In this document: positions 3,809 through 19,017 of the stretch, piece by piece
Layout of the letters: every line of letters begins with the position of its first letter
How positions within the stretch are numbered: position 1 is the stretch's first letter
Assembly: GCA_023382675.1 (NCBI GenBank)
Contig: JAHDWN010000014.1
Location: forward strand, 1-64,000
Source: Anaerolineae bacterium
GTDB taxonomy: Bacteria; Chloroflexota; Anaerolineae; Aggregatilineales; Phototrophicaceae
Length of the DNA: 64,000 nucleotides
Direction of reading: 5' to 3'
Notes under the pieces: model-generated
Databases searched by the model: none
Told to the model about the DNA's origin: nothing
The model's input: only the letters and a program-made list of their open reading frames with translations
Made by a program: the position numbers and the translations under genes

Positions 3809-4056
3809 GGGACACTCGGTTCTGGGTACTGAGTTCTGTGTTCTGGGTTCAAATTTGGGTGCTCAGTGCTCGGTGCTCAGTTCAGGGTTCACGGTGCGAC
3901 AAAACGAGTACTCGGTGCTCGGTACTCTGTACTCGCTTCAACGGACAAGCCACATTTTTTGCGTGCCCGAAAAGCTAAGCGCTAAAGGCTATCGGCTAGA
4001 GGCCAAAAGCTCAAAAGCCAAAAGCTGACAGCCGACCGCCGCTAGCCAACCGCCAC
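3809..4056 (+). repeat. Composite intergenic repeat, copy 3 (long)
   Basis: This copy carries two GTACTC/GTGCTC tracts (about 3812-3940), the linker words TTCAACGGACAAGCCACA and GTGCCCGAAAAGCTAAG, and a long GGCTAA/AGCC tract (about 3978-4050). It fills the whole yebC-ruvC gap and would be transcribed as the ruvC leader. Confidence 0.7.
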
Positions 4057-4809
4057 CTACGCTGTCTCGAAGGCGTTGAGCGCCTCGTCGGTCATCATCA
4101 GGTTGCTGGAGACGCTCTGCACGTCGTCAAGTTCTTCCAGCTCGCTCATGATGCGCAGGTTCTGGATCGCCTTTTCGAGCGCGACTTCGGTCTCGTTCTT
4201 CGAAATCCACTTGAGTTCGGACTCGTCGATCTCGTAACCGGCCTCCGCCAGCGCCTCTTCGACCGCCGCGAACTGCTCGCGCGGGGTGTAGACGACCACG
4301 ACGCCGTCTTCGTTGACGACATCGTCCGCGCCGGCTTCGGCGGCGACCATGAACACCTCGTCAAAATCGACCGCGTCGCCCTTGAGGATGATCGCGCCTT
4401 TGTGCTCGAACTGCCAGAGCACCGACCCGACCGAGGCCATGTTGCCGCCGAACTTGTTGAAGACACGCTTCATCTCGCCGAGGGTGCGGTTCTTGTTGTC
4501 GGTCAGCACGTCGATGACAATGCCGACGCCTTCCGCGCCGTAAGCCTCGAATGTGATCTCCTCCATGTCCGCGCCTTCGAGCTTGCCCGTGCCTTTGAGA
4601 ATGGCGCGCTCGATGTTCTCTTTCGGCATGTTCGCCGCGCGCGCTTTCTGAATGGCGAGGCGCAGCTTGGCATTGGCGTTCTCGTCGCCGCCGCCTTCGC
4701 GCGCTGCCTGAACGATCTCACGCCCCAGGCGGGTAAAGATTTTCCCTCGCTTGGCGTCTTCTGCGCCTTTCTTACGCTTAATGGTCGACCATTTGCTATG
4801 TCCGGACAT
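4057..4809 (-). CDS. yebC: YebC/PmpR-family protein
   Basis: The 250-residue protein begins MSGHSKWSTIKRKKGAEDAK, the signature start of YebC. Hallmarks follow: NMPKENIERAILKGTG, FEAYGAEGVGI and NKNRTLGEMKRVFNKFGG. Family members are either DNA-binding regulators or ribosome-associated factors that help translate proline-rich stretches, a role that would fit the Pro-rich proteins in this window; that link is an inference. ATG 4809 is certain from homology, and upstream in-frame codons are not conserved. A TATAAT -10 box lies at 4852-4857 on the same strand. Confidence 0.96.
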   Translation of the reverse strand: MSGHSKWSTIKRKKGAEDAKRGKIFTRLGREIVQAAREGGGDENANAKLRLAIQKARAANMPKENIERAILKGTGKLEGADMEEITFEAYGAEGVGIVIDVLTDNKNRTLGEMKRVFNKFGGNMASVGSVLWQFEHKGAIILKGDAVDFDEVFMVAAEAGADDVVNEDGVVVVYTPREQFAAVEEALAEAGYEIDESELKWISKNETEVALEKAIQNLRIMSELEELDDVQSVSSNLMMTDEALNAFETA

Positions 4810-4851
4810 ATCTTCGGTGTCCCCCCCAAAAGTGATTTCAAAGTTGTGATG

Positions 4852-4857
4852 ATTATA
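4852..4857 (-). promoter_or_regulatory. Candidate -10 box of the yebC promoter
   Basis: The minus strand reads GGTATAATC about 45 bases upstream of the yebC start. No convincing -35 box is seen at 17 bases spacing. Confidence 0.45.
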
Positions 4858-5091
4858 CCTGAGAGGCGCGCGAGCGTCGAGACAGGGGCACAGATCGCGC
4901 GGGCAAACGGGGGAGGGGGAACCACAGTGGCACACAGGCCACAGAGGTACACTGTTTCCTGTCGAATTCGCTGATGCGCTAATCTGCTATTTCGCTATTT
5001 CGCTAATTTGCTCTCCACGCCAGGGCAAACGCATCAAAATCCTCGATGGGTTCTTAATGGTTCATAGTGTATCGCAAAGGGTGATTTCTTC

Positions 5092-5173
5092 GTAGGGGCG
5101 CATCATGATGCGCCCCTACAGACACCCAGAGACCCTTTATAACCCGTGGTTCCTGATTCATGCGATTGCCCTG
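5092..5173 (+). repeat. 82-base dispersed repeat, copy 1 (inverted copy at 20652-20733)
   Basis: The reverse complement of these 82 bases is identical, base for base, to 20652-20733, and identity stops sharply at both ends. One end is a 28-base perfect palindrome with arms GTAGGGGCGCATC and GATGCGCCCCTAC. The rest includes CCTTTATAACCCGTGGTTCC. Confidence 0.95.
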
Positions 5174-5212
5174 TCTCCACGCTTGAGATGCGCCGTTGCC
5201 TCAGTTGGTGCG

Positions 5213-5221
5213 TGTTATAAT
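5213..5221 (+). promoter_or_regulatory. Extended -10 promoter for the FecR-like gene
   Basis: TGTTATAAT is a consensus -10 hexamer with the upstream TGn extension. It lies 39 bases before the ATG at 5261. No good -35 is seen, as expected for extended -10 promoters. Confidence 0.5.
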
Positions 5222-5260
5222 GCACGTCGCTCGTCAGTAAGGTGTTTTCGCATAGTCAGT

Positions 5261-6721
5261 ATGAGCACGACCACCCGCGAACATCCACGTCTCCGCCAGC
5301 GCAGCCAGCAGAACGTCGCCTGGGGCATCCTCTGGATCGCGCTCGGACTGTTCTTTCTCACGGTTGCGCTGGCCAGCATGGGCATCTATTACTTCCTGTT
5401 TCGCTCGACAGTGCCGCTGCAATCACAACTCCAGGTCTCGCGCGGGACGCTCGGCGTCACCGGCACGGATCTGATCGAGCAGGTGGTGCGCGGCGACCGC
5501 CAGCCATATCTGCTCTTTGGCGACGTTATCACCGTCAACCCTGACTCGCAGGGGCTGCTCTTGATCGACGACGTGCGCCTGGAAGACGCGCCCTATGTCG
5601 CCGCGCTCACCTTGAGCAATGATTCATCGGTCACGCTCAACGAGGCCGCGCGCCCGCGCTACGATTGGAGCAGCCAGCCCTATACGCTCGATCTCGGCAA
5701 CGTTGCCGGCGAAGTCAGTGTGCTGATCTCCGAGCAGAGCGAGCGCGAGGTACGCATCGCGCTCACGACGCGGAGCGGCGACTCGGTCATCCTGACCAGT
5801 CCAGGTGAGTATCTGGTGACAGCACGCGGCGAACAACTGGCGGTCTCCAACATCAGCGGCACGGCGCTGCTGGTCACGGACGACCGAAACAGCAACCGCG
5901 CGGTGCCCGCCGGTCAGCGCGGCCTGCTGACGACCACGAACAACGAGATCAGCCTGGAAGGTGGCTACGTCAATCTACTAGGGGAGCGCGGCTTCCGCGA
6001 AACCAACATCGTCGCGGACGCAGCCAGCTCAGCGGCTGGCGCAGGGCCGAACGCCACCCCCTGGATTTGCAGCAGCCCGCCGCATGACCCGCCGCGCGGC
6101 TCCTATGGCATCGTCAACTTCGACGGGCGTACCACGCTTCACATCATCCGTGATGGCGGCGCACAAACGCACGGCGAAACGCGCTGCACCAAGTATTTCG
6201 GCGCAGGCACGACCGGCATCGACATTTCAGATCACAGCTACCTGGCGCTGAGGGTGACGTTCTACGTGGCCGGGCAGTCGCTGGCCGTATGCGGCGTGGC
6301 CGGGACGGAATGCCCGCTGATGGTCAACATGCAGTACATCCCCCAGAATACGCCGGGTGCCGAAAGCGCCGCGTCACTCACAGTCAATCCCGCGACACCG
6401 GAACAGCCGTTTGGCCCGATCCCGGTCGAAGACATCCCGGTGCGCAATTGGCATCACGGTTTCTACACCGTGCCTGCGGGCTCAATCCCGTCGCCGCTGC
6501 GCTGCGATACCTGCCCGCAGGAGCATTCGTTCATCCGCCAAGGCCGTTGGTTCACCTATGACACGGGCAATCTGCTGGCGCTGTTCCCTCAGGAGCAAAA
6601 GCCCGGCTCAATCCTCAGCTTCAGCTTTTACGCATCCGGTCACGAATACGACGTCTACGTCAGCGAAGTCGCGCTGCTGGTGGACACGCTTTCGGCAGAC
6701 TCCGAACAACCGGCAGGGTAG
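5261..6721 (+). CDS. Membrane-anchored protein with FecR-like beta domain, function unknown
   Basis: The 486-residue protein has one N-terminal membrane helix (about residues 22-48, WGILWIALGLFFLTVALASM), so nearly all of it is outside the membrane. Residues about 65-260 read like a FecR-type beta domain: repeated short strands, then LTSPGEYLVTARGEQLAV and AVPAGQRGLL. The C-terminal half has four to six cysteines (CSSPPHD, ETRCTK, AVCGVAGTEC, LRCDTC) and resembles a secreted beta-sandwich, possibly carbohydrate binding. I do not recognise a named family. ATG 5261 is chosen because it precedes the hydrophilic stub and helix; the in-frame codons before it fall in the 82-base repeat. Confidence 0.7.
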   Translation: MSTTTREHPRLRQRSQQNVAWGILWIALGLFFLTVALASMGIYYFLFRSTVPLQSQLQVSRGTLGVTGTDLIEQVVRGDRQPYLLFGDVITVNPDSQGLLLIDDVRLEDAPYVAALTLSNDSSVTLNEAARPRYDWSSQPYTLDLGNVAGEVSVLISEQSEREVRIALTTRSGDSVILTSPGEYLVTARGEQLAVSNISGTALLVTDDRNSNRAVPAGQRGLLTTTNNEISLEGGYVNLLGERGFRETNIVADAASSAAGAGPNATPWICSSPPHDPPRGSYGIVNFDGRTTLHIIRDGGAQTHGETRCTKYFGAGTTGIDISDHSYLALRVTFYVAGQSLAVCGVAGTECPLMVNMQYIPQNTPGAESAASLTVNPATPEQPFGPIPVEDIPVRNWHHGFYTVPAGSIPSPLRCDTCPQEHSFIRQGRWFTYDTGNLLALFPQEQKPGSILSFSFYASGHEYDVYVSEVALLVDTLSADSEQPAG

Positions 6722-6739
6722 CAGCGAAAGGGCGCAGAT

Positions 6740-7105
6740 TTGGCGAAGGTAAGCGTACAAGACATCCTTGCCGGGCATACGCCGCCTGTGCAGGCATTGG
6801 CCGAGCACCTGCGCGCGCTGATCCTGGATGCCGAGCCGCGTCTGATCGAAAAGGCGTATGCGGGCTGGCATGGTATCGGCTACACCCACCCGCAGGCTGG
6901 GTACGTCTGCGCGATCTTTCCCCACGAAAACAGCGTCAAGCTCGGCTTCGAGCACGGCGCAAGCCTGCACGATCCGGATGGCCGCCTGCGCCAGGGGGCG
7001 AGCAAGGGCAAGCAGGTGCGCTACTACGAAATCCACAGCCTTGATGACATCTACCCGGATGCCATCCTCGACTTTTTGGTACAGGCCATCCGCCTCAAGT
7101 CATAA
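6740..7105 (+). CDS. DUF1801 (YdhG-like) protein
   Basis: The 121-residue protein matches the DUF1801 pattern: a helical start (VQALAEHLRALILDAEPRLIEKAYAGW), the core FPHENSVKLGFEHGASL and the end GKQVRYYEIHSLDDI. Members are small alpha/beta proteins without an established reaction. It starts at TTG 6740 with GAAAGGG upstream; no in-frame ATG precedes it. It begins 19 bases after the FecR-like gene and is probably co-transcribed with it. Confidence 0.75.
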   Translation: MAKVSVQDILAGHTPPVQALAEHLRALILDAEPRLIEKAYAGWHGIGYTHPQAGYVCAIFPHENSVKLGFEHGASLHDPDGRLRQGASKGKQVRYYEIHSLDDIYPDAILDFLVQAIRLKS

Positions 7106-7130
7106 AGGCACGCAGCAGATGACTTCTGCG

Positions 7131-7835
7131 TCAGAAGCCGAGATTGCTCTCGCGCAGTGATGTCCAACCGCCGCGCGCGATGATCAGATGATCGAGGAAC
7201 TGGATGTCGAGCAGTTCCCCGGCGGCTGCCAGCGCGCGCGTGATCTCCACGTCTTCCGGCGACGGCGCGGGATCGCCGGACGGGTGGTTGTGTGCCAGGA
7301 TCAGCGCCGGGCAGTTGCGGGCGATGGCTTCGCGGTAGACCTCGGCCACGCGCACGACCGACGCATTCAGCGTGCCGATGTAGATGGTCGAGATGGCGAC
7401 GACGCGCCGCCCGCTGTCGAGGAGCAGGGCGCGCACGTGCTCCTGTTGTAGATGCGCCATATCCTGCACGAGGCCAATCGCATCCTCCGCCTTGTAGATG
7501 ACCGGTTGGTCGTGCGGAGTGATCGTACTCAGGCGGCGGGCCAGCTCGGCCGTGGCGAGGAGTTGCGTGCGCTTGGTCTCGCCCAGGCCGTGAATATCCG
7601 TCAAGTCTGCCGGTTGAACGCTCAGCAAGCCGTGCAGGCCGCCGATGCGCGCGAGCACGCGCTCGGCCAGGTGGACGACACTTTCTTGCTGGCTGCCCGT
7701 GCGCAAGATCAGCGCCAACAGCTCGGCGTTGGTCAGTGCTTCCGCGCCCAGCCGCAGCAGCCGTTCGCGCGGGCGCTCGCTCGCGGGCAGGTCGTGTAGA
7801 GAGAGGCTGGCGCGGTCGGCGGGCATTCGCGTCAT
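7131..7835 (-). CDS. radC: RadC-family JAMM protein
   Basis: The 234-residue protein has the standard RadC architecture: an N-terminal UPF0758 segment (DLPASERPRERLLRLGAEAL), a helix-hairpin-helix (LTDIHGLGETKRTQLLA, about 78-94) and a JAMM metalloprotease-like domain. The metal ligands are His182, His184 and Asp195 in HNHPSGDPAPSPED. The biochemical role of RadC is still unsettled; family members turn up near recombination and defence genes. It is divergent from the zinc-ribbon gene that leads into the ATPase/HNH pair. An AGGA ribosome site precedes ATG 7835. Confidence 0.93.
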   Translation of the reverse strand: MTRMPADRASLSLHDLPASERPRERLLRLGAEALTNAELLALILRTGSQQESVVHLAERVLARIGGLHGLLSVQPADLTDIHGLGETKRTQLLATAELARRLSTITPHDQPVIYKAEDAIGLVQDMAHLQQEHVRALLLDSGRRVVAISTIYIGTLNASVVRVAEVYREAIARNCPALILAHNHPSGDPAPSPEDVEITRALAAAGELLDIQFLDHLIIARGGWTSLRESNLGF

Positions 7836-7868
7836 CAGTTGTCCTGGCGGTCTATTCTTACGACTTGA

Positions 7869-7877
7869 TGCTATACT
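7869..7877 (+). promoter_or_regulatory. Extended -10 promoter upstream of the zinc-ribbon membrane gene
   Basis: TGCTATACT fits a TGn-TATACT extended -10 element. It lies 35 bases upstream of the ATG at 7912 and could drive the gene and the ATPase/HNH pair after it. Confidence 0.45.
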
Positions 7878-7911
7878 TTCATCATATCACGTACCGCCTG
7901 GAGGCGTTTGC

Positions 7912-8496
7912 ATGTTTGGATTGGATGCGGATACCACCAATAACCTGGTTGTTGCCGGGTTGGTCTACCTGGGCATGGTCGCGGCGGCCTTCTGGCTGGC
8001 GATGATCATCTGGGCCTACCGCGATATGCGCGCCCGCTCGCGCGATGCGCTGGCACAGTGGTTGGTGGCGCTTCTGGTGGCGGTGCTCAATCTGCCTGGT
8101 CTGCTCATTTACCTGTTCCTGCGCCCGCGCGAGACGCTCTCGGAAGCTTACGAGCGCTCGCTCGAAGAAGAGGCGCTCTTACAGGAGATCGAAGACAAGC
8201 CGGTGTGTCCCGCCTGCCGCCAGAAGACCGACCCCGAATGGCAGGCGTGCCCACACTGCCACACGCGCTTGAAGAAGCCGTGCATCCGCTGCGGGCGGAT
8301 GCTCGAACTGCCGTGGGATCTGTGCCCACACTGCGCGACGCCGCAGCCCGCCAGCTATGGCGAGCCTGCCTACAGCACAGCGCCCGCCGGGGACATCGGC
8401 CTGCCGAAGGTCAGCCGCCGCGAACGGCGGGCCGCGCGTGCCAGCGCTCCCTCTACCGGCAGCAGCGGTTCCATCGAGTTCGTGGACGAGGAATGA
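7912..8496 (+). CDS. Two-helix membrane protein with double zinc ribbon
   Basis: The 194-residue protein has two membrane helices (about 11-35 and 47-70) followed by two CxxC...CxxC zinc ribbons: Cys99, 102, 113, 116 and Cys124, 127, 138, 141. It ends in a basic, Ser-rich tail. Such proteins are common but functionally uncharacterised; the ribbons should sit in the cytoplasm. ATG 7912 has GGAGG upstream (CCTGGAGGCG). Its stop is 52 bases before the ATPase gene, so the three genes at 7.9-10.6 kb may form one transcript. Whether it belongs to the defence module is an open question. Confidence 0.75.
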   Translation: MFGLDADTTNNLVVAGLVYLGMVAAAFWLAMIIWAYRDMRARSRDALAQWLVALLVAVLNLPGLLIYLFLRPRETLSEAYERSLEEEALLQEIEDKPVCPACRQKTDPEWQACPHCHTRLKKPCIRCGRMLELPWDLCPHCATPQPASYGEPAYSTAPAGDIGLPKVSRRERRAARASAPSTGSSGSIEFVDEE

Positions 8497-8548
8497 AACG
8501 ATCAGCGTCTGATGCCCGGCCAATGCGCCGGAAGCGAGGAGCCGCCTC

Positions 8549-9805
8549 ATGTATGTGACTCTCGTTCAGATCAACAACATCCGCTCGATCCGCAGCCTGG
8601 AATGGAAGATCAAGCCACAGGAAGCGCCCGGCTGGCACGTCATCCTGGGCGAGAACGGCTCCGGCAAATCGACGCTGCTGCGCGCGATTGCGCTGGCGCT
8701 GGTTGGCGAGCGCGATGCCGTGAAACTGCGCCAGGACTGGAGCCGTTGGCTGACGTATGGCGAAAACAAGGGCAGCACGTGCCTGAACGCGATCCCCGAT
8801 CCGGCCTATGACGAGGCCAAGGGCGGCAGACGCGCCAAGGGCGTGGAATTCGCCGTGTCGTTTGAGCGCGACGATGGCCTTGTCGAACTGTCGGGCGACC
8901 GCGAGGGCGGGCGTTTGCCACCCAAGGGTTGGTTTTCCGCGGGATATGGCCCGTTCCGGCGCTTCGGCGGGATGGCCATGCAGCAGCAAGAACTGATGGA
9001 GAGCCGCAGTGTGGGCCGCCTGTCCGCGCATCTGTCGATCTTTGGCGAAGATTATTCGCTGACGGAAGCGCTCGAATGGCTCAGGCAGTTGAACTACCAG
9101 CGCCTTGAGAAGCGCAAGGAAGGCCACCTGCTCGATTCGTTGATCCGCTTTGTCAATCAGCCGGGCTTTTTGCCGCAGGATACGCAGCTCAAGGAAATTT
9201 CCTCCGACGGTGTCACGTTCCAGGATGCCAACGGCGCGCTTGTGCCCGTCGAGTCGCTCAGTGATGGCTATCGCTCGATCCTGAGCATGACCTTCGAGCT
9301 GATCCGCCAGCTCTCGTTTGTTTATCCGCTGGATGAGATTTTCTCGAAAGATGAGTCCAAGATCGTCGCACCCGGCGTCGTCCTGATCGACGAGGTGGAC
9401 GCGCATCTTCATCCGACGTGGCAGCGCGAGATCGGCTTCCGCATGTGCGAGTTTCTGCCCAACATGCAGTTCATCATCGCCACCCACAGCCCGCTCGTCT
9501 GCCAGGCCGCCATCAAGGGCAGCATCTGGAAGCTGCCGCGTCCGGGCAGTGATCAGGTCTTCCACCGCGTCGAAGAACCCGAACTTGGTCGCTTGCTCTA
9601 TGGCAACGTCCTCGACGCTTTCGGGACGGATCTGTTCGGCAGCGACGTGGCGCGCTCCGAACCGGCCAAAGAGAAGCTTCAGCGCCTGGCCGAACTCAAT
9701 ATGAAGGAGCTTCAGGGCAGCCTGACCGCGCAGGAAGCCTCAGAGCAGCAAACCCTGCGCGCCGTCATGCCGACCGCGGCCAGCACCAGCCGCCAGCGAA
9801 AATGA
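8549..9805 (+). CDS. PtuA-like AAA/ABC-type ATPase (Septu-type defence system)
   Basis: The 418-residue protein is an SMC/RecF-like ATPase of the AAA_21 type. It has Walker A GENGSGKS (34-41), an ABC-signature-like SLSDGYRSI (236-244), Walker B VVLIDEVDAHLHP (277-289) and the switch histidine in IIATHSPL (309-316). A region of about 190 residues between Walker A and signature replaces a coiled coil. In known Septu and type I-A retron systems this kind of ATPase (PtuA) pairs with an HNH nuclease (PtuB). Here the HNH gene overlaps it by four bases (ATGA). No reverse transcriptase is nearby, which favours Septu over a retron. OLD-family nucleases are excluded because there is no Toprim domain. 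Confidence 0.8.
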   Translation: MYVTLVQINNIRSIRSLEWKIKPQEAPGWHVILGENGSGKSTLLRAIALALVGERDAVKLRQDWSRWLTYGENKGSTCLNAIPDPAYDEAKGGRRAKGVEFAVSFERDDGLVELSGDREGGRLPPKGWFSAGYGPFRRFGGMAMQQQELMESRSVGRLSAHLSIFGEDYSLTEALEWLRQLNYQRLEKRKEGHLLDSLIRFVNQPGFLPQDTQLKEISSDGVTFQDANGALVPVESLSDGYRSILSMTFELIRQLSFVYPLDEIFSKDESKIVAPGVVLIDEVDAHLHPTWQREIGFRMCEFLPNMQFIIATHSPLVCQAAIKGSIWKLPRPGSDQVFHRVEEPELGRLLYGNVLDAFGTDLFGSDVARSEPAKEKLQRLAELNMKELQGSLTAQEASEQQTLRAVMPTAASTSRQRK

Positions 9806-10608
9806 GACGCATTCCTGATCACGTGCTGCCGGACGAGGTGTTGGCGCAGCTTCTGGCGTGGCAGCACGAGATCGACGCGCTGCCGGATTTCGCCGCCAGG
9901 GTGGACGCCGCCAAAACGCGCTTTAGTTCGCGCAGCGGGCGCTCGAACAAAACGTTTCGCCAGGTGCGTGCGGCGCTCAAGGAGATGTGTGCTGGCGCGC
10001 GGCGCTGCATGTACTGCGAAGATTCGGTTGCGGACGAGGTCGAGCATATCAAACCCAAGAATTTCTATCCCGAAGCCGTGTTCACCTGGGAAAACTATCT
10101 GTATGCCTGTGGCCCGTGCAACGGTGGCAAGAGCGACCAGTACGCTGTGATCGATGCTGCGACAGGCGCGATTATGCCGCTCATGCGGGCGACGGGCGCA
10201 CCGCCGCTGCCGCCGCAGGCAGGCGAGCCGGTCTTTCTCAATCCACGCACGGAAGCTGTCGAGCAGCTTTTCTTTCTGGATTTGCTCGATACATTCTTTC
10301 TGCTGCCGGACCCCGGCGCACCGCTGGCGCTGCAACAGCGCACTCAGTACACCATCGACGTGCTCAAGCTCAACCGCGAGAGTCTGCCCGAAGCGCGCCA
10401 GGAAGCCTACGACAGCTACCGCGACCGTCTGGAGGCCTATATCCGGCGGCGCGACCTGGGGGATTCGGCGGCCAAATTGCAGAAGCGCATCGACAGCCTG
10501 AAGAAGGCAGCGCACCCCACGGTCTGGCATGAGATGAAGCGCCTGCACGCGCAGGTGCCGGAACTGAACGCGCTCTTTCAGGAAGCCCCGGAAGCCCTGG
10601 GGTGGTGA
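9802..10608 (+). CDS. PtuB-like HNH endonuclease (TIGR02646-type)
   Basis: The 268-residue protein has a zinc-bracketed HNH site: Cys69 and Cys72 (CMYC), the catalytic block DEVEHIKPK with His82, the middle WENYL and a second pair Cys103/Cys106 (CGPCNGGK). This spacing is typical of the HNH proteins that pair with PtuA-like ATPases. It should cut DNA when released or activated by its ATPase. The C-terminal 150 residues are helical. Its start codon lies inside the ATPase stop (ATGA), so translation is coupled. It ends 76 bases from the convergent membrane gene. Confidence 0.82.
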   Translation: MRRIPDHVLPDEVLAQLLAWQHEIDALPDFAARVDAAKTRFSSRSGRSNKTFRQVRAALKEMCAGARRCMYCEDSVADEVEHIKPKNFYPEAVFTWENYLYACGPCNGGKSDQYAVIDAATGAIMPLMRATGAPPLPPQAGEPVFLNPRTEAVEQLFFLDLLDTFFLLPDPGAPLALQQRTQYTIDVLKLNRESLPEARQEAYDSYRDRLEAYIRRRDLGDSAAKLQKRIDSLKKAAHPTVWHEMKRLHAQVPELNALFQEAPEALGW

Positions 10609-10625
10609 TCGGTCGAATCGACACA

Positions 10626-10643
10626 GGCGGCACATTGGCCGCC
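10626..10643. terminator. Weak hairpin between convergent genes
   Basis: GGCGGC, loop ACATTG, GCCGCC, followed by CGTTCTGT. It lies in the 76-base gap after the HNH gene. The T-run is poor. Confidence 0.25.
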
Positions 10644-10684
10644 CGTTCTGTCATGGCATGTCTGCCCGTGGACTGCTGACAGCG

Positions 10685-11377
10685 CTATGCCGATACGGCC
10701 TCTCGGATGCGGCGCAGGCCGAGCGTGACGAGGGCGAACGCCAGCAAGACCGAGGCGATGACGCTGATGATCTCGATGTCGGGGTTGAGCAGCAGTGCCG
10801 ACCCGGCGATGAGCAGCCCGGCCTGCCAGCGCGGGAGCACGCCGGTGCGGTAGAAGCCGATGCCCATGATGATGAAGCCGATTGGCAGCAGTACCAGCCC
10901 ATAGACGAGCCACAGCCAGCCCTGCATCCCCTTCATCGCCGCGATGGCCGGGTAGATCTGCGCGAACTCAGCCGCGGAGAGGGTGTCAAAGGCGCTTGTC
11001 ACCAGACACAGCGCGCCCTTATCCGCCGCCAGGAAGACGGCACCAACGATTGCCAGGATTCCGCCGACAAAGCCGTAGGGGCGTCCCTTTGCGCGCAGCA
11101 TGGTCATCAACTCGGTGGTGATCGCGATCAGCAGCGGCACGCACAACAACATGAGTACGTGACTGAAATGGAGCGGCGCATTGCCGTGCCATTCGGCGAT
11201 CCAGGCGTCGATCTCATGAACGGGTTGCAGACTGAGCAGATTCGGATGTGACGCATAGATGAAGATTGATAAAATCGGAAAGACGATCAGGGCGAGGCCG
11301 ACGGCAAAGCGCCCGTTTTGCCTGGCATGTCGCCGGCTCTGGCTGTGAGTCGTGAGGCTCGTCTGTAAGGTAGTCAT
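10685..11377 (-). CDS. Polytopic membrane protein, unknown function
   Basis: The 230-residue protein has about six membrane segments (for example FAVGLALIVFPILSIFIYAS, FSHVLMLLCVPLLIAITTEL, GGILAIVGAVFLAA, WLWLVYGLVLLPIGFIIMGI). It has no transporter motif I can name. ATG 11377 has a clear AGGAG upstream; an earlier in-frame ATG at 11455 lies in the divergent promoter. It is divergent from a TetR regulator with a 118-base gap, so it is the likely target of that regulator. Confidence 0.75.
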   Translation of the reverse strand: MTTLQTSLTTHSQSRRHARQNGRFAVGLALIVFPILSIFIYASHPNLLSLQPVHEIDAWIAEWHGNAPLHFSHVLMLLCVPLLIAITTELMTMLRAKGRPYGFVGGILAIVGAVFLAADKGALCLVTSAFDTLSAAEFAQIYPAIAAMKGMQGWLWLVYGLVLLPIGFIIMGIGFYRTGVLPRWQAGLLIAGSALLLNPDIEIISVIASVLLAFALVTLGLRRIREAVSA

Positions 11378-11495
11378 GTGCGGGTTTCTCCTGTTCAATT
11401 GCGATGACTTCACCATAGGCGCGAACGCCGCGGACAGCAATAAACAGGCGCGCACGTGTGTCGGATACTGAACAAAAGGTGCAAGGTGTTCAATC

Positions 11496-12089
11496 GTGAA
11501 TGAAGATCGGCGGGTGCAGCGAACGCGCGAACTGCTGCAAAACGCATTGATGGAACTCTTGGAGACGCGCGACTACGACGCGCTCACGATCCAGGATGTT
11601 GCGGAACGCGCGAACGTAGGCCGGACGACCGTTTATTTGCATTTCGAAAGCAAAGAGGATCTTTATCGCCAGGCGCACCGGGCAGAGATTGCGCGTATCG
11701 CCGGTGCGCCACTCACGCGCGTGGAGTTGTTCGCCGACGATCCGCCCGACCGCATGGTCGCCGTCTACGCTTATCACTGGGCGACGCGAGATGTCCTGCG
11801 CATGGTCTACTTTGGCAAAGATGCGGAAGTCATCCACCGGCAGATGCGCGATCAGCACTCAGTGCAGATCGCAACCTACCTGGCGGCGACCTTCGCCGGC
11901 GTGCGTTTCATCCTGCCTGTTGATGTGCTGGCGAATTGTCTGGCGGTGTCGGAGATGGGCTTAATGATGTGGTGGATCGAGAAGCATCCGCCGTACACGC
12001 CGGAGCAAATGGCCACCCATTTTCACCGCCTGCGGCGCGGTAGCCTGCGCGAAGGGCTGGCACTCACGGACGTATCCCCCTCAAGTTGA
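11496..12089 (+). CDS. TetR-family transcriptional regulator
   Basis: The 197-residue protein has a TetR helix-turn-helix at about residues 8-55 (TRELLQNALMELLET... LTIQDVAERANVGRTTVYLHFESKEDLYRQ). The C-terminal half is a ligand and dimer domain without a recognisable ligand signature. It starts at GTG 11496. It is divergent from a membrane protein and is followed at 12229 by a UvrA-like ATPase, a typical setting for a regulator of a drug or stress response. Confidence 0.9.
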   Translation: MNEDRRVQRTRELLQNALMELLETRDYDALTIQDVAERANVGRTTVYLHFESKEDLYRQAHRAEIARIAGAPLTRVELFADDPPDRMVAVYAYHWATRDVLRMVYFGKDAEVIHRQMRDQHSVQIATYLAATFAGVRFILPVDVLANCLAVSEMGLMMWWIEKHPPYTPEQMATHFHRLRRGSLREGLALTDVSPSS

Positions 12090-12147
12090 GAATACAGCCC
12101 TCGTTGAGCGGAATCATCGCCGCGCGCCGTCACAAAATGGCCGCCCC

Positions 12148-12167
12148 CGGCATATACAGATATGCCG
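12148..12167. promoter_or_regulatory. Palindromic operator candidate before the UvrA-like gene
   Basis: CGGCATAT, spacer ACAG, ATATGCCG: a perfect 8-base inverted repeat in the 139-base gap between the TetR gene and the UvrA-like gene. Size and spacing suit a TetR dimer site. Confidence 0.5.
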
Positions 12168-12228
12168 AAAGCGTTCGCGAACACAATTCTGTCTTTGGCG
12201 ATTGTTGGTGTCAGACGAGGAGATTTTT

Positions 12229-14478
12229 GTGAGTCAGGAATACATCGAAATCCGGGGCGCGCGTGAGAACAATCTGAAGGATGTGTCGCTGCGCATTCCC
12301 AAGCGCAAAATCACAATCTTTACCGGGGTGTCCGGGTCGGGCAAGTCGTCGATTGTCTTCGACACGATTGCCAATGAGGCGCAGCGTCTCTTGAACGAGA
12401 ATTTCAGCATGTTCGTGCGCGCGTTTCTGCCCCGCTACGCGCAGCCGGACGCCGATGCCATCGAAAACCTGAGTATGCCGATCATCGTCGATCAGAAACG
12501 GCTGGGCGGCGGCGCACACTCGACCGTGGGCACGATCACGGACATCTATGCTGTGCTGCGACGCTTGTTCGCGCGCGTTGGCCAGCCGCACGTCGGCTAT
12601 GCCAACGTCTTTTCGTTCAACGATCCGGCAGGCATGTGCCCGGAATGCAGCGGCGTTGGTCGCAAGATCGGCGTTGATCTAGACAAGTTTCTGGACACCT
12701 CAAAGTCATTGAATGACGGCGCAATTTTGTTCGGAGCCTATGCAGTCGGTAAATGGGATTGGAATTTCCTGACCCAATCCGGGTTATTCGACAACGACAA
12801 AAAGCTTGAGGATTACACCGATGAAGAGATGGAGCGTCTCCTGTATAGCCCACCGATCAAAGTGAAAACCGAATTCGCGGGAAATTCTGTGAACCTGACC
12901 TTTGAAGGCATCATCGACAAATTCACGCGCAAATACATCACCAACGATCTCAAGACGATGTCAGAGCGCACGCAGAAGACGGTCGCACCGTTCATGACTT
13001 TTGGGCTCTGCCCGCTGTGCAAGGGCGCGCGCTTGAGCCAGGCGGCGCTCAGTTGCAAGATCGACGGCTATAACATCGCCGACCTGGCTGCGATGGAAGT
13101 CGACGAGCTGATCGAGGTCATCCGCGCGATTGATCACCCGGTCGCGCGCCCAATCGTCGCGACTCTGGCCGAGCGCTTGCAGCACCTGATCGATATTGGC
13201 CTGGAATATCTCACGCTCAGCCGCGAAACCGACACGCTCTCCGGCGGTGAATCGCAGCGCGTCAAGATCGTCAAGCATCTGAGCAGCAGCCTGATCGACG
13301 TGATGTACATCTTCGACGAGCCGAGCATCGGCCTGCATCCGCGCGACGTGCATCGCCTCAACGAACTGCTGCAAAAGCTGCGCGACAAGGGCAACACGGT
13401 GATCGTGGTCGAGCACGATCCCGACGTGATCAAATCCGCCGATCACGTGGTCGATGTCGGGCCGTTCGCCGGGGCGCGCGGCGGCAGCATCGTCTACGAA
13501 GGCAGCTATGCCGGGCTGCTGGAGGCCGATACGCTGACCGGGCAGCACATTCGGCGCACGCTGTCGATCAAAGACGCTTTTCGCCCACCGGCGGGACGGC
13601 TGCCGGTCGTCAATGCCAGGGTCAACAACCTGCAAAACGTGAGCATCGATATTCCCGTCGGCGTGCTGACCGCCGTCACCGGGGTGGCTGGCTCCGGCAA
13701 AAGCTCGCTCATCCATCAGGCTTTCCTGAAGCAGCACCCGGATGCCGTTGTCATCGATCAGACGCCGGTGGGCACGTCAACGCGCTCCAACCCGGCGACC
13801 TACACCGGCATCATGGACGACATTCGCAAAGCTTTCGCGCAGGCCAACGGCGTCAGCGCGTCACTGTTCAGCTTCAACTCCGAGGGCGCGTGCGAGAACT
13901 GCCAGGGGTTGGGCGTCATCTACACCGATCTGGCGGCGCTGGGCGAGGTGAAGTCACCGTGCGAGGTCTGTGACGGCAAACGCTTCAAGGACGAGGTGCT
14001 CGGCTACCTGTACAACGGCAAGTCGATCACCGACGTGCTCGACATGACCGTGCAGCAGGCGCTCGATTTCTTCGACCTCAAGAAAGTCGCGAGTACGCTG
14101 CAAGCCTTGAGCGATGTCGGGCTGGATTATCTGATGCTCGGCCAGCCGCTGAGCACGCTCTCCGGCGGCGAATGCCAGCGCATCAAGCTCGCCAGCGAGC
14201 TGCACAAGAAGGGCAGCGTTTACGTCCTGGACGAGCCGACGACCGGCCTGCACCGCTCGGACATCAGCAAGCTGCTGGCGATCATGAATCGCCTGGTCGA
14301 TACGGGCAACACGGTGATCGTGATCGAGCACAACCTGGACATCATCAAGAACGCTGACTGGATCATCGACCTGGGGCCGGAGGGCGGTCACAAGGGTGGG
14401 CGCGTCCTGTTCGCGGGCACCCCGGCGCAGCTGCTCGGCGTGCAGGGGTCGTATACGAGCGCGTATTTGCAGAACTAG
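12229..14478 (+). CDS. UvrA-like ABC ATPase lacking the UvrB-binding segment (DrrC type)
   Basis: The 749-residue protein has two ABC modules. Walker A motifs are at about 33-41 (GVSGSGKSS) and 485-493 (GVAGSGKSS). Signatures are LSGGESQRVK (about 335) and LSGGECQRIK (about 643). Zinc pairs are CPEC/CPLC (about 136 and 260) and CENC/CEVC (about 554 and 577). In canonical UvrA (about 940 residues) some 215 residues separate Walker A from the first CxxC; here it is about 100, so the UvrB-binding region is missing. Such paralogues, including DrrC, protect against DNA-binding drugs. GTG 12229 has GAGGAG upstream and is preferred over the TTG at 12202. The TetR neighbour suggests inducible expression. 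Confidence 0.9.
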   Translation: MSQEYIEIRGARENNLKDVSLRIPKRKITIFTGVSGSGKSSIVFDTIANEAQRLLNENFSMFVRAFLPRYAQPDADAIENLSMPIIVDQKRLGGGAHSTVGTITDIYAVLRRLFARVGQPHVGYANVFSFNDPAGMCPECSGVGRKIGVDLDKFLDTSKSLNDGAILFGAYAVGKWDWNFLTQSGLFDNDKKLEDYTDEEMERLLYSPPIKVKTEFAGNSVNLTFEGIIDKFTRKYITNDLKTMSERTQKTVAPFMTFGLCPLCKGARLSQAALSCKIDGYNIADLAAMEVDELIEVIRAIDHPVARPIVATLAERLQHLIDIGLEYLTLSRETDTLSGGESQRVKIVKHLSSSLIDVMYIFDEPSIGLHPRDVHRLNELLQKLRDKGNTVIVVEHDPDVIKSADHVVDVGPFAGARGGSIVYEGSYAGLLEADTLTGQHIRRTLSIKDAFRPPAGRLPVVNARVNNLQNVSIDIPVGVLTAVTGVAGSGKSSLIHQAFLKQHPDAVVIDQTPVGTSTRSNPATYTGIMDDIRKAFAQANGVSASLFSFNSEGACENCQGLGVIYTDLAALGEVKSPCEVCDGKRFKDEVLGYLYNGKSITDVLDMTVQQALDFFDLKKVASTLQALSDVGLDYLMLGQPLSTLSGGECQRIKLASELHKKGSVYVLDEPTTGLHRSDISKLLAIMNRLVDTGNTVIVIEHNLDIIKNADWIIDLGPEGGHKGGRVLFAGTPAQLLGVQGSYTSAYLQN

Positions 14479-14482
14479 GGGA

Positions 14483-14660
14483 GAGGGTGCTCAGTGCTCG
14501 GTGCTCAGTTCTGAGTACTGGGTACTGAGTTCTGGGTTCAGAAGAGGGTGCTCAGTTGGGTCACGGCTCACGGTGCGAATACTGGTGATGAGGTGATGAG
14601 GAACGAGGGGATGAGGAGAGCGCCAGCCTGGTGTTCGCTGTTCACGGTACGACAAAACAT
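14483..14660 (+). repeat. Composite intergenic repeat, copy 4 (GTGCTC tract plus GATGAG words)
   Basis: GTGCTCAGTGCTCGGTGCTC and GAGTACTGGGTACTGAGT lie at 14487-14535, followed by GGTCACGGCTCACGGTGCGA and a short GTGATGAGGTGATGAGG tract. The rest of the 324-base gap to 14802 shows no coding frame and no clear promoter. Confidence 0.6.
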
Positions 14661-14802
14661 GTGCCATCGCGCAGTTTGACCCGCCGACGACGCAAACGAC
14701 CCAGCCCGGTTACTGCCAAAGCCAGACATCCGATCATCTGTAACTCTATGATCCATATGCCATGATCCGCCAAATCCCCATGAGTATAGACAAAGGTGCC
14801 AG

Positions 14803-15279
14803 ATGCCTAACGATCTCACGGACATCAAATCGTATGTTGTAGGCTGCCACATGATGCGCAACGGTGCTCTGGAGCGCCTCAGGGACGCCGATCTGCAATT
14901 CGTACCTGGCGGTGACAACCTCACGCTGGGGGAGTTATTCAAGGAGTTGGGTGAGCACCAACATGCTTATGTTGAGTCGTTGATCACGCTCAAGCAGGAT
15001 TGGACCTACCGCAATGATGAACCTGGGCTATCGACCAGCCTCGCGCAGTTGAACCGCTGGTTCGCGCAACTCGACCGAAAAATGGAAGATGTACTGAACC
15101 GGCTTGACGAGAGCGATCTAGAAAAGATGGTTGATCGCACCAATGGTTCGATCCGCTCCGTCCTCAGCCAACTCGACATCTATACTCAGACGATGTTGAT
15201 CTTCCTGGGGAAGGTGGTTATCTACTTCAGAGCCATGCAAAAGCCGCTACCACCATCCATCGCAACGTATATTGGCTAG
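14803..15279 (+). CDS. DinB-like four-helix protein
   Basis: The 158-residue protein fits the DinB/YfiT four-helix-bundle superfamily: an early histidine in VVGCHMMRNGALERLRDAD, then LTLGELFKELGEHQHAYVESL, and a third block, SVLSQLDIYTQTMLIFLGK, where the usual metal histidines are absent. Members bind a divalent metal through three histidines and include bacillithiol and mycothiol transferases. The incomplete histidine set leaves catalysis in doubt. The start is ATG 14803. Function is not predicted further. Confidence 0.65.
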   Translation: MPNDLTDIKSYVVGCHMMRNGALERLRDADLQFVPGGDNLTLGELFKELGEHQHAYVESLITLKQDWTYRNDEPGLSTSLAQLNRWFAQLDRKMEDVLNRLDESDLEKMVDRTNGSIRSVLSQLDIYTQTMLIFLGKVVIYFRAMQKPLPPSIATYIG

Positions 15280-15352
15280 ATTCTGTTTACGACAAGCGGA
15301 TGTCGATTCCCACCCCCGAATATCTCGTCCAGCGACAGTCTGTGGGCTGAGT

Positions 15353-15982
15353 TCACGCTTCGACGGCGGCGCGCAGCCGCATCTCCAGTTCGGCGAGCAT
15401 GATCGCGGTCGCGCCCCAGACTTTGTGCCCGGCAAAGGCATAGAACGGGATGTCGAACGTGCCTCCGGCGAATGTCCACGGTTCGCGCTGCTGCACAGCC
15501 GGATCGAGCAGGCTGGACAGATCGACATGGATGATTTCAGCCACTTCGAGCGGATTGGGCTGCAAGGGCGGCAGTGAAGGCAGGTAGCCGACGACGGAGT
15601 AGACCAGGAAGTTGGTCGGCGGCACGTAGAGCGGCGTCAGGCTGCCGAGCAGGGCGATGCTGGGATCGCACAGGCCGAGTTCTTCGCAGGTTTCGCGCAG
15701 GGCTGTGTCTGCGAGGGTCGCGTCGGCGCGATCCTGCCTGCCGCCGGGGAAGCTGATCTGCCCGCTGTGCTGGCGCAGCGACTCCGGCCTGCGCGTCAGC
15801 ACGAAACGCAGGCCAGCGCCGCCGGGATAGAGCAGGATGAGCACGCCCGCGGGTTTGGCGCTGGCAGGCGGCGCGGGTACCATGCGCCGCCCTTCCGGGG
15901 CCATGTGCAGGCGCGCCGCGTCAACATCAAAATCCGGCAGCGCGAGCGCCGCGCGAACGTGTTCGAGTGTGATCGGTATCAT
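15353..15982 (-). CDS. Nudix hydrolase, CoA pyrophosphatase (NudL) type
   Basis: The 209-residue protein has the UPF0035 motif LTRRPESLRQHSGQISFPGG (62-81) immediately before its Nudix box, which ends in REtCEELGL (97-104). That combination marks the coenzyme A pyrophosphatase branch, which splits CoA into 4'-phosphopantetheine and 3',5'-ADP. The C-terminal YAFAGHKVWGATAIML block is also typical. The canonical Glu early in the box is Ala here, as can occur in this subgroup. No strong ribosome site precedes ATG 15982. It is 51 bases upstream of the pyk stop on the same strand, but reads away from it. Confidence 0.85.
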   Translation of the reverse strand: MIPITLEHVRAALALPDFDVDAARLHMAPEGRRMVPAPPASAKPAGVLILLYPGGAGLRFVLTRRPESLRQHSGQISFPGGRQDRADATLADTALRETCEELGLCDPSIALLGSLTPLYVPPTNFLVYSVVGYLPSLPPLQPNPLEVAEIIHVDLSSLLDPAVQQREPWTFAGGTFDIPFYAFAGHKVWGATAIMLAELEMRLRAAVEA

Positions 15983-16033
15983 GCCCGTATGGTATCAGAA
16001 ATTGCCGTCGAAAATGCCCAGTGCTGCCGCTAG

Positions 16034-17509
16034 CTATTCGCTGTTGAGTTCGCCGCTTTCGCCCACGGTGTGAATCTTGAGGAAATTCGTCTGCCCCGCC
16101 ACGCCAAACGGTACACCGGCGATGATGATGATGCGGTCGCCGATGCCGACCAGGTGCGCATCCACCGCGGCGCGGACGACGATCCGCAGCATGTCGTCGA
16201 TGGTCGTAAACTCGCGCACCGCCACCGGGATCGCGCCCCAGACGAGCGACATGCGGGTGTAGGTGAGTTCACTCGGCGTCGCGCAAATGATCGGCGTCCG
16301 CGGGCGTTCGCGGGCGACGCGGCGGGTGGTGTAGCCGGAGAGCGTCAGCGTGATGATCGCTTTGCATTCGAGCGCGTCCGCGATCTGCGTCGTCGCGATA
16401 CAGACGGCGTCGGCCGCTGTCTCGATGCCTTCACGCTCGTCGGTGAGCGGGTCGTCGATGATGGGGAAGTGAGGCGGTGTGATGTGCTGCTCGGCGATGT
16501 TGGCAATCTGCGCCATCACCTCGATCGCGCGCACGGGATACTTCCCCGACGCCGTCTCGTTGCTGAGCATGACCGCGTCTGTGCCGTCGATAATGGCGTT
16601 GTAAACGTCGCTGGCTTCGGCGCGGGTGGGGCGCGGGTTATCGACCATCGAGTTGAGCATCTGCGTCGCCGTGATGACCGGCTTGCCCGCGTGGTTGCAC
16701 AGGGCGATGATGCGCTTCTGGTGGAAGGGCACTTCTTCCGCCGGGGTCTCAACGCCCAGATCGCCGCGCGCGACCATGATGCCATCTGAAGCGGCGATGA
16801 TCGACTCGATGTTGTCCAGCGCCTCGCGCATCTCGATTTTGGCGATGATGGCTGCATGGCCGCCCAGGTGGCGGATGAGCCATTTCATCTCGCGGATGTC
16901 CGCCTCAGAGCGCACGAACGACATGGCGATATATTCCGTACCCTTGGAGAGCGCGAACTGCACATCGGCGCGATCTTTATCGGTGATTGCGCTTAGAGTC
17001 AGGCGGCTGTCTGGCGCGCTGATGCCCTTGCGCGAGGTCAGCTCGCCACCGACGACGACCTGGCAGATGAGCGAGCTTGCGGTCGCGGATGTGACCGTGA
17101 ATTCGAGCTTGCCATCGTCCAGGAGCAGCGTCGAACCCGCCTTGATGTCACGCACGAACTCCGGATGCGGCAGCGTGACGACGTTGTTGCTGCCATCCGC
17201 CGAATCCAGCGTCAGTGTGATCGTGTCGCCTGGCTCCAGGACGAGCGGCTCTTTGGCGATCTTGCCGATGCGGATCTTAGGCCCCTGGATGTCGCAGAGC
17301 ACAGCCACGACCGAGCCTTCTTCCTTGGCGATGCGGCGAATGTCGTCGATAGCTTTGCTGTGACCTTCGTGATCGCCATGCGAGAAGTTGATGCGGGCGA
17401 CGTTCAGGCCACCACGCACGAACCGGCGCAGGGTAGTTTCGTCCCGCGATGACGGGCCGAGTGTGGCGACAATTTTCGTGCGCTTCTGGTCGATGCTGAT
17501 GTTGCTCAT
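16034..17509 (-). CDS. pyk: Pyruvate kinase
   Basis: The 491-residue protein converts phosphoenolpyruvate and ADP to pyruvate and ATP. Diagnostic blocks are KIVATLGPSSRD, NVARINFSHGDHEGH, the catalytic-lysine region IIAKIEMREALDNI, and VARGDLGVE with the Mg ligands, then TQMLNSM and EASDVYNAIIDGTDAVMLSNETASGKYP. The C-terminal domain is present, so the enzyme has full length. Enolase, the preceding glycolytic step, lies just upstream on the same strand; a repeat-rich 182-base gap separates them. Confidence 0.98.
   Translation of the reverse strand: MSNISIDQKRTKIVATLGPSSRDETTLRRFVRGGLNVARINFSHGDHEGHSKAIDDIRRIAKEEGSVVAVLCDIQGPKIRIGKIAKEPLVLEPGDTITLTLDSADGSNNVVTLPHPEFVRDIKAGSTLLLDDGKLEFTVTSATASSLICQVVVGGELTSRKGISAPDSRLTLSAITDKDRADVQFALSKGTEYIAMSFVRSEADIREMKWLIRHLGGHAAIIAKIEMREALDNIESIIAASDGIMVARGDLGVETPAEEVPFHQKRIIALCNHAGKPVITATQMLNSMVDNPRPTRAEASDVYNAIIDGTDAVMLSNETASGKYPVRAIEVMAQIANIAEQHITPPHFPIIDDPLTDEREGIETAADAVCIATTQIADALECKAIITLTLSGYTTRRVARERPRTPIICATPSELTYTRMSLVWGAIPVAVREFTTIDDMLRIVVRAAVDAHLVGIGDRIIIIAGVPFGVAGQTNFLKIHTVGESGELNSE

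Positions 17510-17691: not shown

Positions 17692-19017
<1,326 letters not shown>

What the first reader, a model, noticed from the sequence alone, without database searches (positions are those of the whole stretch)
8549..10608. A Septu-like ATPase and HNH nuclease pair, co-translated
The ATPase has Walker A, SDGYRS-type signature and THSPL switch. The HNH protein has CxxC...EHIKPK...CxxCN. Their genes overlap by ATGA. This is the arrangement of PtuA and PtuB in Septu and in type I-A retrons. No reverse transcriptase is present. A zinc-ribbon membrane protein sits 52 bases upstream and could be a third component not in the classic system.
Basis: partly seen in the sequence, partly recalled or inferred. 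Interest (0 to 1): 0.7.

Follow-up and report, generated by a model that had tools for sequence, protein, structure and literature searches.

The report
Ordinary Septu (PtuA-PtuB) anti-phage pair
Two overlapping genes in a bacterium of the Anaerolineae lineage encode a two-part anti-phage defence system of the known Septu type, and the neighbouring membrane protein suspected of being a third part is a gene that nearly all related genomes carry anyway.

Summary
PADLOC gives PtuA (476 bits) and PtuB (337 bits) over full length; predicted folds match PtuA and PtuB of Septu and type I-A retrons first. In the best 80 PtuA-homologue loci, PtuB follows in 77. The HNH metal-binding and catalytic residues are invariant in 52 PtuB rows. 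No reverse transcriptase was found in the 64-kb window or the 80 loci, so this is Septu type I in PADLOC terms. The proposed third component is not supported: the zinc-ribbon gene is in 58 of 61 genomes of the lineage, a close PtuA in 4 of 61. In 11 of 12 relatives examined that gene abuts pyruvate kinase; here about 7.5 kb lies between, so ptuAB sits in an accessory block behind a core gene. What PtuB cuts cannot be read from sequence. An ordinary new member of a known kind; interest is low.

The parts
8549..9805 (+). ptuA: ABC/SMC-type ATPase of Septu, 418 aa
   Evidence: PADLOC PDLC00269 PtuA 476 bits over residues 1-415; AlphaFold2 mean pLDDT 90; the 50 PDB chains listed are all from Septu/PtuA or retron I-A entries
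9802..10608 (+). ptuB: HNH endonuclease of Septu, 268 aa; start overlaps ptuA stop by ATGA
   Evidence: PADLOC PDLC00340 PtuB 337 bits over 1-268; AlphaFold2 mean pLDDT 96; the first ten PDB matches are all Septu or retron I-A entries; C69 C72 H82 N98 C103 C106 K110 invariant in 52 rows
7912..8496 (+). membrane double-zinc-ribbon protein: conserved gene of the lineage, judged NOT part of the system
   Evidence: 58 of 61 genomes; homologue in 1 of 80 ptuA loci
8497..16045 (.). accessory block of about 7.5 kb between the zinc-ribbon gene and pyruvate kinase; holds ptuAB, a DUF4386-like membrane protein (below Pfam cut-off), a TetR regulator, a UvrA-like ATPase, a DinB-like protein and a NUDIX hydrolase
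   Evidence: zinc-ribbon gene next to pyruvate kinase in 11 of 12 relatives examined; here pyruvate kinase is 16046-17509; contents shared with G002, families

Best explanation
This is a Septu anti-phage defence system (type I in PADLOC terms: PtuA + PtuB, no reverse transcriptase), carried in an accessory block behind a conserved gene. By analogy with solved Septu and retron I-A effectors, PtuA would form an ATP-binding oligomer that carries PtuB, and phage infection would switch on the HNH nuclease of PtuB, which cuts nucleic acid (phage DNA or a host tRNA) and stops phage production. Shown here: gene identity, intact motifs, conserved pairing, fold, absence of a nearby RT, patchy distribution. 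Inferred: oligomer, trigger, target and protection. In type I-A retrons the RT-msDNA part restrains PtuAB; what restrains it in RT-free Septu I did not find in the passages read.
For: Full-length PADLOC matches. PDB sequence matches (the single PtuB sequence alone is weak, best E 0.0015) and fold matches to PtuA/PtuB. PtuB downstream in 77 of 80 PtuA loci, with an in-frame ATG, GTG or TTG overlapping the ptuA stop in 46 of 80. HNH ligands invariant in 52 rows. No RT in the window or the 80 loci; control: 20 of 20 model members and the held-out RT L138 found. Patchy presence, 4 of 61 genomes, and spread over nine phylum labels. Some loci adjoin Hma or type I restriction genes; the PADLOC paper reports Hma often near Septu type I (PMC8565338, passages). 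Mechanism from PMC13096335 (abstract, Introduction, two Results sections, Discussion), PMC11555353 (passages) and PMC12948488 (passages).
Against: NCBIfam PtuA and PtuB models (retron Ec78 type) are matched far below their curated cut-offs (118 of 500 and 47 of 150 bits), so this is a branch distant from that type. Foldseek TM-scores normalised by the query are moderate, 0.51-0.66 for the PtuA rows shown and 0.47-0.53 for the ten PtuB rows, at 12-22% identity. A PADLOC 'type IV restriction' model scores 165 bits on PtuA, third in its list. The block is no clear defence island: among its five other proteins the only strong PADLOC match is the UvrA-like ATPase to a MADS model (255 bits), which NCBIfam reads as UvrA. 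GC does not stand out. Function was not tested.
Confidence: 0.95

Rival explanations
1. A three-gene Septu variant in which the membrane zinc-ribbon protein tethers or senses for PtuAB.
For: The gene lies 52 bases upstream in the same direction, with the same spacing in the sister genome G002.
Against: It is in 58 of 61 genomes, 54 or more of them without a close ptuA. In G001, whose ptuAB is on another contig, and in 10 other relatives it abuts pyruvate kinase instead. A homologue is in only 1 of 80 ptuA loci.
Confidence: 0.02
2. A type I-A retron effector pair whose reverse transcriptase was lost or lies elsewhere in the genome.
For: Retron I-A chains head the Foldseek lists of both proteins; one RT exists in the genome, on contig C27; 29 of 40 genomes holding homologue loci have an RT somewhere (given 43 of the 80 loci).
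Against: No RT in the window or inside the 80 homologue loci; no Rfam match at 4000-16000. PtuA is about 130 residues shorter than the 550-residue retron PtuA.
Confidence: 0.03
3. A methyl-directed type IV restriction pair rather than Septu (PADLOC mREase_IV models).
For: PDLC03660 165 bits on PtuA and PDLC03661 54 bits on PtuB.
Against: The PtuA and PtuB models score 476 and 337 bits; fold matches are Septu and retron effectors.
Confidence: 0.03

Closest known systems
Septu type I (PtuA + PtuB; PDB 8ee4, 8eea, 8sux)
   Same: Two genes, ATPase then HNH nuclease; no RT nearby; same folds
   Different: Only 15-18% identity to these chains in the fold alignments; PtuA shorter, 418 against 465 aa
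Type I-A retron effectors PtuA/PtuB (Ec78/Eco7, Ec83/Eco4)
   Same: First Foldseek matches of both proteins; ATPase plus HNH nuclease pair
   Different: No RT nearby; PtuA about 130 residues shorter; PtuB longer before its HNH part (profile position 53 aligns with chain residue 30)
PADLOC models PDLC00269 (PtuA) and PDLC00340 (PtuB)
   Same: Full-length matches of both proteins
   Different: Nothing notable seen

Membership tests
Septu type I | PtuA ATPase with Walker A, signature, Walker B, H-switch | tested here: met
   present in the window; core residues G34 N36 G39 K40, G240, D281 E282, H313 invariant in 62 rows, S238 and D239 nearly so
Septu type I | PtuB HNH nuclease with zinc ligands and catalytic His/Asn | tested here: met
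Septu type I | ptuA and ptuB adjacent as one unit | tested here: met
   (77 of 80 loci)
Septu type I | No reverse transcriptase next to the pair | tested here: met
   (0 in window ORFs, 0 in 80 loci)
Septu type I | Fold of both proteins | tested here: met
   TM-scores moderate
Septu type I | 6:2 PtuA:PtuB oligomer | not tested
   stoichiometry from the table of PMC12948488 (passage); no complex was predicted
Septu type I | Anti-phage protection | not testable with these tools
   needs a phage challenge
Type I-A retron | Reverse transcriptase and msr-msd RNA next to PtuAB | tested here: not met
   RT. RNA: no Rfam match, which covers only curated families
Three-gene Septu variant | Zinc-ribbon gene travels with ptuAB | tested here: not met

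The most novel reading that the evidence does not exclude
This RT-free branch of PtuAB, far from the retron Ec78 type and with a short PtuA and a longer PtuB N-terminal part, may be triggered or targeted differently from the E. coli systems studied so far, for example cutting a tRNA other than tRNA-Tyr.
Probability: 0.15. Interest if true: 0.4.

Novelty: new member of a known kind. Interest (0 to 1): 0.12.

Why it matters
It adds a clean Septu from the Anaerolineae lineage and removes a false lead (the zinc-ribbon third gene). The accessory block between a conserved membrane gene and pyruvate kinase gives an easy comparison of genomes with and without the pair. The target of PtuB in this branch (DNA or tRNA) stays open; published PtuABs differ in it (PMC11555353, passages).

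Tried and rejected
Third component: not supported. Any other conserved third gene: all-against-all comparison of neighbouring ORFs in 80 loci (up to 8 kb each side where the contig allowed) gave no third family near the pair; the clusters after ptuA and ptuB span 8 loci or fewer and are antisense ORFs, scattered genes, Hma and type I restriction genes. The picker there took only ORFs of 90 residues or more, longest first, and is imperfect: it recovered ptuA in 68 and ptuB in 56 of 80 loci, so a short or overlapping third gene could be missed. Retron: rejected. Viral contigs: one partial relative (38% identity). Phages: 8 of 50,697 records matched, one over at least 80% of the query at 25% identity. 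Plasmids: 93 of 72,556 records matched, 36 over at least 80% of the query, best rows about 44% identity, so relatives do ride on plasmids. Promoter and terminator scan: nothing beyond chance. GC of the pair (61-63% in the windows that cover it) does not stand out. The iterated PtuB profile was contaminated by out-of-frame ORF extensions; counts are taken, whose profile holds four proteins only. Literature search for 'Septu' with 'zinc ribbon' listed 7 papers, none with a title on the Septu system (the term also matches septum). Complex prediction was not attempted.

Full report
Observation. Two ORFs on the + strand, 8549-9805 (418 aa) and 9802-10608 (268 aa), overlap by ATGA at 9802-9805, and a zinc-ribbon ORF (ATG at 7912) ends at 8496, 52 bases upstream.

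Lineage. Records in the same genus group as the window's genome carry the title Anaerolineae bacterium: the contig of G002 (114,483 bases) and that of G001 (54,825 bases) agree in length and match with L057 and L062. That Anaerolineae is a class of Chloroflexota is recalled.

Identity. PADLOC gives PtuA PDLC00269 at 476 bits over residues 1-415 and PtuB PDLC00340 at 337 bits over 1-268; other PtuA and PtuB models follow at lower scores, and a 'type IV restriction' model is third for PtuA at 165 bits. NCBIfam PtuA and PtuB (retron Ec78 type) are hit below their cut-offs (118 of 500, 47 of 150 bits). PtuA chains of retron I-A and Septu are the best sequence relatives in the PDB, followed by AriA and an OLD-family protein. 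PtuB alone matches weakly (best E 0.0015) and its profile clearly (best E 2e-18, with IscB and other HNH proteins far below). AlphaFold2 models have mean pLDDT 90 and 96. Foldseek: the 50 chains listed for PtuA (of 212 at E up to 0.001) all come from Septu/PtuA or retron I-A entries; the first ten for PtuB likewise (E 1.8e-5 to 7.4e-3), after which E jumps to 3 and more. TM-scores are moderate (0.51-0.66 and 0.47-0.53 by query length).

Conserved unit. PtuB lies directly downstream in 77 of 80, and in 46 of 80 an in-frame start codon overlaps the ptuA stop. Of the three without PtuB, L122 has a transposase-like ORF next (recognised by eye), L104 has a shortened PtuA ORF ending in a PtuB-like tail, and L103 a long odd ORF with no PtuB behind it. 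The HNH pattern was found in 72 of the 77; of the other five, L079 and L095 are partial and L117, L132 and L136 have G in place of the Asn after the last Cys. I aligned 52 PtuB rows (the window, three relatives and 48 of the 77 loci; the rest left out for unclear ends, fragments, duplicates or closeness to others): C69, C72, H82, N98, C103, C106 and K110 are invariant. In 62 PtuA rows (the window, three relatives, 58 of 80 loci) the core Walker A, signature glycine, Walker B and switch histidine residues are invariant. A quick tree of these 62 rows holds nine phylum labels, needs 15 label changes against 37 in shuffles, and pairs the window with G002 (86% identity). G001 is next by path; L076 (Chloroflexota) and G016 follow at about equal distance. 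The group of the window, G002, G001 and G016 has 92% SH-aLRT, not starred.

No retron. The only RVT_1 match in the window's own genome is on contig C27. Homologue-bearing genomes do have RTs (29 of 40, given 43 of 80 loci). A profile of 20 of these RTs found 0 in window ORFs and 0 in ORFs of the 80 loci (flanks up to 8 kb, shorter at contig ends), while finding its 20 members and the held-out RT L138. Rfam at E up to 1 found nothing at 4000-16000. The PADLOC authors call PtuAB preceded by an RT Septu type II and equate it with type I-A retrons (PMC8565338, passages); this one is therefore type I.

The zinc-ribbon gene. It has a double zinc ribbon above Pfam's cut-off (35.5 against 27.3 bits) and an N-terminal part that looks membrane-spanning by eye. 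It occurs in 58 of 61 genomes (the own one and 60 of its genus, family and order; G017, G020 and G057 gave none, not looked into). PtuA at E below 1e-100 occurs in 4 of 61 (G000, G001, G002, G016); the matches in the 15 other genomes are partial, E 9e-5 to 1e-3. In G001 and G016 the pair is on another contig than the zinc-ribbon gene. Among the 80 loci a homologue occurs once, in L057, the sister genome. Of the genomes without the pair at this place I examined 12 downstream: in 11 a convergent ORF that reads as pyruvate kinase ends from 3 bases inside to 151 bases after the zinc-ribbon stop, and in 10 of those an enolase-like ORF follows; G024 (L052) has another gene. Names were checked by NCBIfam on L044 and the window, the others by eye. 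In the window pyruvate kinase is at 16046-17509 and enolase at 17695-18984. So about 7.5 kb, also present in G002, lies between them. Besides ptuAB it holds a membrane protein, a TetR regulator, a UvrA-like ATPase, a DinB-like protein and a NUDIX hydrolase. Whether it came in one step is not known.

Mechanism. Published work gives two activities for PtuAB: cleavage of DNA (Septu of E. coli ATCC25922 as told in PMC11555353, passages; Septu in the table of PMC12948488, and ssDNA for retron Ec83 there) and loss of tRNA-Tyr (retron-Eco7, PMC11555353; Septu EcB88, cut in the variable loop only on infection, PMC13096335). EcB88 needs both Walker and HNH residues for defence, and those motifs are intact here. 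Which substrate this PtuB cuts cannot be told from sequence.

Verdict. A well-formed, ordinary Septu type I system, new only as a member, with the third-component idea not supported.

Noticed in passing
12202-14478: UvrA-like double ATPase in the same accessory block: NCBIfam TIGR00630 788 bits, above its cut-off of 730, but shorter (746-758 aa) than that model (924); beside a TetR regulator. PADLOC's mad3 model also matches at 255 bits.
   Followed up: partly
8497-16045: Accessory block between a conserved zinc-ribbon gene and pyruvate kinase, present in G000 and G002; the two genes are adjacent in 11 of 12 relatives examined.
   Followed up: partly
L079, L091, L104: PtuAB relatives beside a cluster of Hma-type genes; HmaA model matched in L091, HmaB and HmaC models in L104.
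   Followed up: partly
L104 8610-9362: A PtuA ORF whose C-terminus reads into a PtuB-like tail, as if an internal deletion had fused the two genes.
   Followed up: no
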